From: Acidiferrobacter thiooxydans
Lineage (GTDB): Bacteria; Pseudomonadota; Gammaproteobacteria; Acidiferrobacterales; Acidiferrobacteraceae
Reading direction: 5' to 3'
Assembly: GCF_003333315.1 (NCBI RefSeq)
Contig: NZ_PSYR01000001.1
Span: 522,501-586,500 of the forward strand
DNA length: 64,000 nt
Shown: in pieces, positions 5,624-37,078 of the stretch
Layout: every line of letters begins with the position of its first letter
Numbering within the stretch: the stretch's first letter is position 1
Position numbers and translations under genes: made by a program
Notes under the pieces: model-generated
Database searches by the model: none
Told to the model about the DNA's origin: nothing
What the model saw: the letters and a program-made list of their open reading frames with translations, nothing else

Positions 5624-5652
5624 TTGCGGTACGTCGCGCCTTTCCCTAGAAT
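5624..5652 (+). promoter_or_regulatory. Sigma70-type promoter for the split tRNA-Thr
   Basis: -35 TTGCGG (5624-5629), 17-bp spacer, -10 TAGAAT (5647-5652). Predicted +1 is near 5659, about 11 nt before the mature tRNA 5' end at 5670. Confidence 0.72.
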
Positions 5653-5669: not shown

Positions 5670-5960
5670 GCCCGCATAGCTCAGCTGGTAGAGCATCTGA
5701 TTTGTAAAATTGCACCTGCACCCGGAAACGGATGCAGTGGAGATGGCTAAAACGGGGAAACCTTGGGGCACCACCCTGTGGCAATCCCGTGCTAGCCGCG
5801 ATGAGCGGCGAGTGTAGAGACTTTACACCATCCACCTAAATCGTGCCTGCGTGCCCGACAAGGTGAAGAGAAAGTCCAGACCCCAAACCATTGGCGTGGG
5901 CTGCGAAAGCAGTAGCGGGTATGAATCAGAGGGTCGGGGGTTCAAATCCCTCTGCGGGCT
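5670..5960 (+). tRNA. thrU: tRNA-Thr(UGU), interrupted by a group I intron
   Basis: Exon 1 is 5670-5705 and exon 2 is 5924-5960; joined they give a 73-nt cloverleaf. Acceptor GCCCGCA pairs with TGCGGGC. The anticodon stem TCTGA pairs with TCAGA, and the seven-base loop TT-TGT-AA has anticodon UGU at 5703-5705. T-loop sequence is TTCAAAT. The discriminator is T at 5960 and the next bases are TAC, so CCA is not encoded, unlike the four following tRNAs. It occupies the thrU position of the E. coli thrU-tyrU-glyT-thrT-tufB cluster, but an aconitase gene separates it from tRNA-Tyr. Confidence 0.94.
5706..5923 (+). ncRNA. Group I self-splicing intron (IC3-like) in the tRNA-Thr anticodon loop
   Basis: 218 nt inserted between tRNA positions 36 and 37, with U before the 5' splice site and G as the last intron base (5923). 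A full fold can be drawn. P1: anticodon TGT 5703-5705 with GCA 5712-5714. P2: 5716-5737, GAAA loop. P3: GATGG 5742-5746 with CCATC 5828-5832. P4: ACGGG 5752-5756 with CCCGT 5786-5790. P6: GCCGC 5794-5798 with GCGGC 5804-5808. P7: GACTTT 5819-5824 with AAAGTC 5871-5876. P8: CACCT 5833-5837 with AGGTG 5861-5865. P9: 5901-5912, GAAA loop. It resembles the compact Azoarcus tRNA-Ile intron (GTGTAGAGACT and AGTCCAG blocks). There is no ORF inside, so it should splice without an encoded protein. Confidence 0.93.
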
Positions 5961-6013
5961 TACACCTTTACCGGGTCTTTTGAGAGTAGGGCGGCCGCCC
6001 TGAGAACACGTCC

Positions 6014-8342: not shown

Positions 8343-8427
8343 GGAGGGGTACCCAAGCGGCCAAAGGGATCAGACTGTAAATCTGACGGCTCTGCCTTCG
8401 GAGGTTCGAATCCTCCCCCCTCCACCA
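8343..8427 (+). tRNA. tyrU: tRNA-Tyr(GUA)
   Basis: 85 nt class II tRNA with a long variable arm, anticodon GTA in the loop CTGTAAA, acceptor GGAGGGG paired with CCCCTCC, discriminator A and encoded CCA. Second tRNA of the cluster. Confidence 0.96.
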
Positions 8428-36645: not shown

Positions 36646-36674
36646 TTGATATTCCGGGGTTTCTAGGCTAGGCT
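36646..36674 (+). promoter_or_regulatory. Candidate alpha-operon promoter
   Basis: -35 TTGATA (36646-36651), 17-bp spacer, -10 TAGGCT (36669-36674). It overlaps the end of the gap after rpmJ. A CCCTT-GTG-AAGGG stem-loop follows (around 36687-36699) before rpsM, in the place of the S4-binding leader of E. coli, but I could not show the pseudoknot. Confidence 0.5.
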
Positions 36675-36721
36675 TGCGCGCTTTTCCCTTGTGAAGGGCG
36701 CGTTTAGGAGAGAACAGTACG

Positions 36722-37078
36722 ATGGCCCGTATCGCAGGCATCAATATTCCGAACCACAAGCATGTCGAGATCGGACTTACGTCGATCTATGGCATAGGGC
36801 GGCAGCGTTCCCGGCAGATCTGTGATGCCGCGGGCGTGGCGCTGAACGCCAAGGTCAAGGATCTGACGGACGCCGAGGTGGAGAAGATCCGTGCCGAGGT
36901 CGGCAAGCTCGTGGTCGAGGGCGATTTACGGCGGACCGTGTCCATGAACATCAAGCGCCTCATGGATATCGGCAGTTACCGCGGCATGCGCCACAGGCGC
37001 GGGCTGCCGGTGCGCGGACAGCGTACCAAGACCAACGCGCGCACGCGCAAGGGCCCGCGCAAGGGCATTCGGAAGTGA
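36722..37078 (+). CDS. rpsM: 30S ribosomal protein S13
   Basis: 118 aa. Subunit-bridge protein: [19 protein letters not shown] start and [19 protein letters not shown] tail. AGGAGAG upstream. Confidence 0.97.

What the first reader, a model, noticed from the sequence alone, without database searches (positions are those of the whole stretch)
5670..5960. Self-splicing group I intron in the anticodon loop of tRNA-Thr(UGU)
Seen: a tRNA-Thr split between positions 36 and 37 by 218 nt that fold into P1-P9 with a 6-bp P7, GAAA-capped P2 and P9, U before the 5' site and G at the 3' end. Known: bacterial tRNA group I introns are best documented in tRNA-Leu(UAA), tRNA-Ile(CAU), tRNA-Arg(CCU) and tRNA-fMet, as far as I recall. 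Inference: this is an IC3-like relative of the Azoarcus tRNA-Ile ribozyme in a tRNA host I do not know to be described.
Basis: partly seen in the sequence, partly recalled or inferred. Interest (0 to 1): 0.88.

Follow-up and report, generated by a model that had tools for sequence, protein, structure and literature searches.

The report
Ribozyme intron inside threonine tRNA gene
The only gene found in this bacterium for the transfer RNA that reads the threonine codon ACA is cut in two by a 218-base RNA intron of a well-known self-splicing kind, in a tRNA where I saw no earlier report of one, and standard annotation programs miss it.

Summary
Rfam's generic group I model misses it, but it also misses 5 of 5 Thr loci and 3 of 7 related tRNA-intron loci tested. 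A model built only from 15 non-Thr tRNA introns finds it at 116 bits, E 9.5e-33, as the only match in the genome. The same intron lies in 16 of 18 genomes of the family; in the other two no tRNA-Thr(UGU)-like match was seen. Helices show compensatory changes. The guide AUUGCA fits the ligated Thr junction. Thirty Thr introns, 14 of them from a second set of Gammaproteobacteria, form one clade. It is a new host for known tRNA group I (IC3-like) introns, not a new kind of element; splicing itself is inferred. Unexpected: this gene lacks an encoded CCA, which all 42 other distinct tRNA sequences read in the genome have.

The parts
5624..5652 (+). possible promoter: TTGCGG, 17-nt spacer, TAGAAT
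   Evidence: sequence; TA(G/A/C)AAT at this place in the 12 intron-bearing genus members (by eye); the consensus scan found no site at its threshold
5670..5705 (+). 5' exon of tRNA-Thr(UGU), tRNA positions 1-36
   Evidence: matches to intronless tRNA-Thr(UGU) of other families in the order at 90-100%
5706..5923 (+). group I intron, 218 nt
   Evidence: R2 model (no Thr in training) matches 5737-5923 at 116.3 bits, E 9.5e-33
5703..5714 (+). P1: exon UGU (5703-5705) with IGS GCA (5712-5714), G.U at the splice site
   Evidence: (invariant in 16)
5709..5711 (+). 5' half of the IGS (AUU), P10 with exon AA(U) 5924-5926
5716..5737 (+). P2 with GAAA loop
   Evidence: 7 of 8 pairs with changes on both sides; 95.3% of cells paired
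5742..5746 (+). P3 5' strand (pairs 5828-5832)
   Evidence: one of 5 pairs changed on both sides, U-A to C-G, in one sequence
5752..5756 (+). P4 5' strand (pairs 5786-5790)
   Evidence: invariant in Thr introns
5761..5781 (+). P5, variable tip
   Evidence: two invariant pairs; the tip was not counted
5791..5813 (+). P6 and P6a
   Evidence: 3 of 8 pairs with changes on both sides
5819..5824 (+). P7 5' strand, 6 bp with 5871-5876
   Evidence: invariant in 16
5833..5865 (+). P8 and its extension
   Evidence: 4 invariant pairs; extension 2 of 3 pairs with changes on both sides, 91.7% of cells paired
5880..5920 (+). P9 region: closing helix 5880-5883/5917-5920, hairpin 5888-5899, GAAA hairpin 5901-5912
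   Evidence: one pair of hairpin 5888-5899 changes on both sides; the rest invariant
5923..5923 (+). terminal (omega) G
   Evidence: G in all 30 Thr introns read
5924..5960 (+). 3' exon of tRNA-Thr(UGU), positions 37-73; no CCA encoded

Best explanation
The gene makes a precursor tRNA-Thr(UGU) whose anticodon loop is interrupted after U36 by a small group I ribozyme. The ribozyme pairs its guide sequence 5'-AUUGCA-3' with the anticodon UGU (P1) and with the first bases of the 3' exon (P10), binds guanosine at P7, cuts after U36, and joins the exons to give a normal tRNA-Thr(UGU), the only tRNA found in the genome that should read ACA. The Thr introns go back to one entry into this tRNA by a relative of the introns in other tRNAs; within the window's family the intron has been kept. 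Shown: anatomy, homology, conservation, covariation, guide fit, one clade of Thr introns. Inferred: splicing in the cell, with or without protein help, and the guanosine-dependent chemistry.
For: R2, trained on 13 Leu(UAA), one Arg(CCU) and one fMet intron and no Thr intron, matches 5737-5923 at 116.3 bits, E 9.5e-33, over all 199 model positions; only match at E <= 1 in the window and in the 3.25-Mb genome (150 of 456 first-look candidates scored). RF00028 recognises four of those training introns (L112 71.5, L093 51.1, L113 49.7, L139 46.8 bits; cut-off 50), tying the family to accepted group I introns. 16 of 18 family genomes carry it. Covariation. Exons 97.9% and whole intron 82.8% mean pairwise identity against 36% (100 nt upstream) and 48% (60 nt downstream). 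Guide: the window intron has 6 of 6 contiguous P1+P10 pairs; 30 Thr introns average 5.97 with their own junction and 0.10-0.13 with four other hosts' junctions; over 68 introns of five hosts the own-host mean is 5.32 against 3.13 with shuffled labels, 0 of 10000. Spliced exons fold as tRNA-Thr(tgt). No other Thr(UGU) among 43 tRNAs (42 distinct sequences). ACA occurs 7 times in nine ORFs of the window taken as CDS.
Against: RF00028 gives nothing even at E <= 10. The single-sequence MFE is not the group I fold. P3 is only 5 bp. P1, P4, P7 and the GAAA hairpin of P9 do not vary among the Thr introns, so they have no covariation inside this set. G001 and G012 of the genus show neither intron nor intact gene, unexplained. 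The guide test is not clean for every host: Arg(CCU) introns fit the Leu junction (4.67) slightly better than their own (4.33), Leu introns fit the Ser junction as well as their own (5.24), and Arg(UCU) introns fit their own only slightly better (3.78) than Thr's (3.33), partly because of my region limits. No transcript data. A masked stretch beside the window could not be read, so a tRNA there would be missed.
Confidence: 0.95

Rival explanations
1. A degenerate, no longer splicing group I remnant that has killed the tRNA gene; ACA is read by another tRNA.
For: RF00028 does not recognise it; the gene has lost its encoded CCA.
Against: Exons and most of the intron are strongly conserved across 16 genomes while flanks have drifted; no other Thr(UGU) was found; splice-site U, terminal G and guide are present in the 30 Thr introns read.
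Confidence: 0.02
2. A tRNA-Tyr(GUA) with an intron, as ARAGORN's intron mode reports.
Against: The exons match intronless tRNA-Thr(UGU) of sister families at up to 100%; joined at the guide-defined sites they give tRNA-Thr(tgt); a tRNA-Tyr(GUA) lies at 8343-8427.
Confidence: 0.01
3. A group I intron that cannot splice alone and needs a host protein or cofactor.
For: Some group I introns are helped by host proteins in vivo (PMC3984707, passages read).
Against: Compact and GAAA-capped on P2 and P9 like the self-sufficient tRNA introns (recalled). Not tested.
Confidence: 0.15
4. Chance stem-loops in a duplicated or misassembled tRNA region.
For: Folding z-score only -2.4.
Against: Covariance match from a model without Thr introns, 16 genomes, covariation.
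Confidence: 0.005

Closest known systems
[quoted passage not shown]
   Same: same core and order of helices, GAAA loops; two of them (L112, L093) reach the RF00028 cut-off in the control
   Different: inserted at 34|35; guide ends UUGAG in 23 of 25 tested; the Leu genes printed encode CCA
Azoarcus tRNA-Ile(CAU) IC3 intron (recalled; not fetched)
   Same: small, insertion after position 36, short P1 with G.U, GAAA on L2 and L9
   Different: host tRNA; 6-bp P7 and an extra hairpin before P9 here. The comparison rests on memory.
tRNA-Arg(CCU) introns (L113, L116, L108, and about nine in the phylum sample)
   Same: 36|37 insertion, same core
   Different: guide P1 GGG; the three in the tree form their own clade, away from Thr
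tRNA-Arg(UCU) introns of Gammaproteobacteria (9 read here)
   Same: neighbours of the Thr clade in the tree (93/83, not starred, flagged as a possible long-branch join)
   Different: 34|35 insertion in these nine; guide UAGGAG in 6 of 9
Rfam RF00028 Intron_gpI
   Same: the general family
   Different: its model detects none of the five Thr loci tested

Membership tests
Group I introns | P3-P8 and P4-P6 core with P7 guanosine site | tested here: met
   R2 match over all 199 model positions, E 9.5e-33; P3-P9 pairs counted
Group I introns | U at the end of the 5' exon paired to G in the guide; terminal G | tested here: met
   invariant in 16 of 16 and present in the 30 Thr introns
Group I introns | guide sequence complementary to both exons (P1, P10) | tested here: met
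   6 of 6 contiguous pairs for the window intron
Group I introns | match to Rfam RF00028 at its cut-off | tested here: not met
   no match in window or genome. This is a detection rule, not a defining trait of the molecule: the model also misses Ser, Arg(UCU) and Ile2-like loci that R1/R2 find
Group I introns | guanosine-initiated self-splicing | not testable with these tools
   needs RNA
Subgroup IC3 (tRNA introns) | best score to the IC3 subtype model among the subtypes | not tested
   GISSD subtype models not on hand; resemblance to IC3 recalled
tRNA-Thr(UGU) | cloverleaf with anticodon UGU after splicing | tested here: met
   ARAGORN on joined exons
Mobile (homing) introns | intron-encoded endonuclease | tested here: not met
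   by length and ORF list only: no + strand ORF of 100 aa or more inside the window intron; the 30 Thr introns are 210-334 nt; no profile search was run

The most novel reading that the evidence does not exclude
In this lineage the intron-bearing tRNA gene has given up its encoded CCA (15 of 16 family genomes; the only tRNA gene read in the window's genome without it), so the tRNA must receive CCA from an added-on enzyme. The boldest reading is that this separates two steps to advantage: 3'-end completion and charging are withheld from unspliced precursors, so that ribozyme splicing is coupled to tRNA quality control.
Probability: 0.08. Interest if true: 0.7.

Novelty: new member of a known kind. 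Interest (0 to 1): 0.45.

Why it matters
It adds a host tRNA to the list known for bacterial group I introns and gives a clean case of host switching: one clade of introns in tRNA-Thr(UGU), with a guide that fits the Thr anticodon. It also shows an annotation blind spot: default ARAGORN and RF00028 both miss the gene, so these genomes appear to lack a tRNA expected to be essential. The same searches turned up introns in tRNA-Arg(UCU) and a tRNA-Ser(UGA)-like gene, which suggests that the host range is wider than the usual list.

Tried and rejected
RF00028 searches of window and genome gave nothing; put in context by the control. Single-strand folding did not give the group I fold. The promoter scan found no site. 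Searched with the intron alone, the phage collection gave 4 records (Listeria phages, 24% of the intron covered) and the plasmid collection 3 (two Tritonibacter megaplasmids covering 51% at 74.8% identity, which probably hold a related intron and were not read, and one Microvirga plasmid covering 12%); no carrier of this intron was found. My first filter wrongly counted an intron starting AATT as intronless; corrected. In the guide test three of nine Arg(UCU) introns scored 0 because my region was cut too early; they were kept. The fMet, the Ile2-like, L099 and L105 rows (4 of 72) were left out beforehand. In the tree the bootstrap had not settled and several long branches meet; the order among hosts is not relied on. 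The split of the intron into core (99.2%) and periphery (62%) was chosen by me after seeing the alignment, so that contrast is partly circular; the whole-intron figure (82.8%) is not. One search used a loose pattern and was replaced. Loci L086-L090 were fetched and not analysed. RNase Z model TIGR02651 has no match in the window's genome and in 11 of 13 other genus genomes, but none of the 60 genomes reaches its cut-off, so this is not special to the genus.

Literature: ten searches ran on the held open-access library; only the listed part of long result lists was seen (for instance 20 of 471). No listed title or abstract start named a bacterial tRNA-Thr group I intron. Two older papers on tRNA introns are not held, and GISSD and GtRNAdb were not available, so 'not described' reaches no further than that.

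Full report
What is there. The window is a stretch of a 3.25-Mb genome in four contigs running 23S rRNA, 5S rRNA, birA-like, coaX-like and SPOR-like ORFs, the split tRNA, an aconitase-like ORF, tRNA-Tyr, tRNA-Gly(UCC), tRNA-Thr(GGU), a tuf-like ORF, tRNA-Trp and further translation genes (the ORF names are my reading of the translations, no profile search was run). The split gene sits about where E. coli has thrU (recalled). Exons 5670-5705 and 5924-5960 flank 218 nt.

Identity of the host tRNA. Intronless tRNA-Thr(UGU) genes of other families in the order match the exons at up to 100% with the two halves adjacent. Joined exons are called tRNA-Thr(tgt). ARAGORN's default mode misses the gene and its intron mode labels it tRNA-Tyr. 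RF00005 finds 43 tRNAs in the genome, none of them this gene; the 42 distinct sequences among them include Thr(GGU) and Thr(CGU) but no Thr(UGU). A masked stretch beside the window could not be read, so a tRNA there would be missed.

Is it a group I intron. RF00028 gives no match. As a control I scanned 12 loci at E <= 0.01: RF00028 matched two Leu loci (71.5 and 51.1 bits), one Arg(CCU) locus (49.7) and one fMet locus (46.8), cut-off 50, and none of five Thr loci nor the Ser, Arg(UCU) and Ile2-like loci. Model R2, built from 15 non-Thr introns that include those four, finds the window intron at 116.3 bits, E 9.5e-33, over its full length, and nothing else at E <= 1 in the window or the genome. 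The E-values are rough by the tool's own statement; the bit score is not affected.

Conservation. DNA search matched the intron in 16 of 18 genomes of the family, the window's included; G001 and G012 gave only short matches that do not look like tRNA-Thr(UGU). Across the 16, mean pairwise identity is 97.9% in the exons, 82.8% in the whole intron, 36% in 100 nt upstream and 48% in 60 nt downstream; 5 of 73 exon positions vary. A core that I picked out after seeing the alignment is 99.2% and the rest of the intron 62% identical, so that contrast is partly circular. Of 78 pairs in 17 helices, tRNA stems and pseudoknots included, 99.1% of cells are standard, 14 pairs change on both sides (shuffles 6.1, sd 1.2), and slid versions reach 1-7. 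Support comes from P2 (7 pairs), P6a (3), the P8 extension (2), the hairpin before P9 (1) and P3 (1); P1, P4, P7 and P9 do not vary.

How it most likely works. The guide 5'-AUUGCA-3' (5709-5714) pairs with the anticodon UGU, with a G.U at the cleavage site, and with AAU of the 3' exon; the third P10 pair would compete with the anticodon stem. Of the 30 Thr introns 27 carry AUUGCA and three GUUGCA or UUUGCA; of 25 Leu introns tested 23 carry UUGAG; the one Ser intron has UCGAG, 6 of 9 Arg(UCU) introns UAGGAG, the three Arg(CCU) introns GGG. In the formal test over 68 of 72 introns, own-host pairing averages 5.32 against 3.13 under shuffled labels, 0 of 10000. Three limits: introns within a clade are not independent, so the shuffle figure overstates; the searched region is shorter for Thr (16-23 nt) than for some Arg introns (up to 69 nt); and the Arg and Ser rows do not separate cleanly (Arg(CCU) own 4.33, Leu junction 4.67; Arg(UCU) own 3.78, Thr junction 3.33; Leu introns fit Leu and Ser junctions alike, 5.24). 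The Thr result itself is clean: 5.97 own, 0.10-0.13 for the four others.

Distribution and origin. With model R1, 44 of 57 genomes of the order and 70 of 369 sampled genomes of the class have related introns at E <= 0.001. Of the 72 introns read in full (matches that had loci, plus the second-set Thr introns), 30 are in Thr(UGU), 27 Leu(UAA), 9 Arg(UCU), 3 Arg(CCU), and one each in fMet, Ser(UGA) and an Ile2-like tRNA, by their 3' exons; most matches without loci were not classified. Fourteen Thr introns come from a second set of Gammaproteobacteria: one record named Acidiferrobacteraceae, one Acidiferrobacterales, one Arenicellales, eleven without an order. tRNA-Tyr lies downstream in 13 of 14 (the fourteenth, L192, ends 28 bases on), so it is the same locus. 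All 30 Thr introns form one clade (98/97). In a sample of 398 genomes of the phylum, 41 had a match with R2 at E <= 1e-5 (48 matches); of the 28 new loci read, 17 are Leu(UAA), 10 lie at 36|37 of Arg-like tRNAs and one before CAU; none is Thr. So the Thr host is rare in these samples and fits one entry; whether the two groups share it by descent or transfer is open.

The CCA. All 42 distinct other tRNA sequences read in the genome encode CCA, and so do the 31 distinct sequences from the 30 loci given, of 43 matches, in a single-contig genus genome. The intron-bearing gene does not, in 15 of 16 family genomes; L046 does, and so do the 14 second-set genes (12 by script, L192 and L239 by eye), 14 of 14 intronless copies printed from the order and the Leu and fMet intron genes printed. 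The CCA-adding family PF01743 has two matches in the genome. RNase Z TIGR02651 has none, but none of the 60 genomes searched reaches its cut-off. The loss is real; its link to the intron is not shown, since intron genes elsewhere keep CCA.

Verdict. A genuine, very probably active group I intron in a tRNA expected to be essential, of the known tRNA-intron kind, in a host for which I saw no earlier report. Papers, passages only: PMC3984707 has no whole-word 'Thr'; PMC8450103 reports 36 bacterial genomes whose fMet or Ile2 tRNA was missed because of group I introns; PMC6125680 says that no single alignment such as RF00028 seemed likely to capture the subtypes; PMC8172020 says some tRNAs in its circularised genomes had group I introns, not named in the passages; PMC5733544 claims 22-49-nt 'group I introns' in cyanobacterial tRNAs, too short for the core described here; PMC1524935 lists phage tRNA-Thr(UGU) genes and reports no group I introns in its five phages.

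Noticed in passing
window 5960-5966; L032-L045: The intron-bearing tRNA-Thr(UGU) is the only tRNA gene read in its genome without an encoded CCA; absent in 15 of 16 family genomes.
   Followed up: partly
L114, L115, L117-L120, L143, L144, L148: Group I introns in tRNA-Arg(UCU), inserted between U34 and C35, guide UAGGAG in 6 of 9, in several gammaproteobacterial families.
   Followed up: partly
L103: Group I intron in a tRNA-Ser(UGA)-like gene at 34|35 with guide UCGAG fitting the Ser junction.
   Followed up: partly
L270: By eye an Arg(UCU)-like tRNA with an intron after position 36 instead of 34|35.
   Followed up: no
L077, L139 (G039) and L078 (G048): tRNA-fMet group I intron with an open frame ending just upstream of the core that reads, by eye, like an intron endonuclease; no profile search was run.
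   Followed up: no
L109, L292: Introns just before CAU in an Ile2-like tRNA (33|34), unlike the recalled Azoarcus site after CAU.
   Followed up: no
Tritonibacter megaplasmids NZ_CP015231.1 and NZ_CP110385.1: The 3' half of the intron matches at 74.8% over 51% of its length, probably a related intron; not read.
   Followed up: no
window 36674-36754: Alpha operon ribosome binding site (RF00140), 40.2 bits.
   Followed up: no
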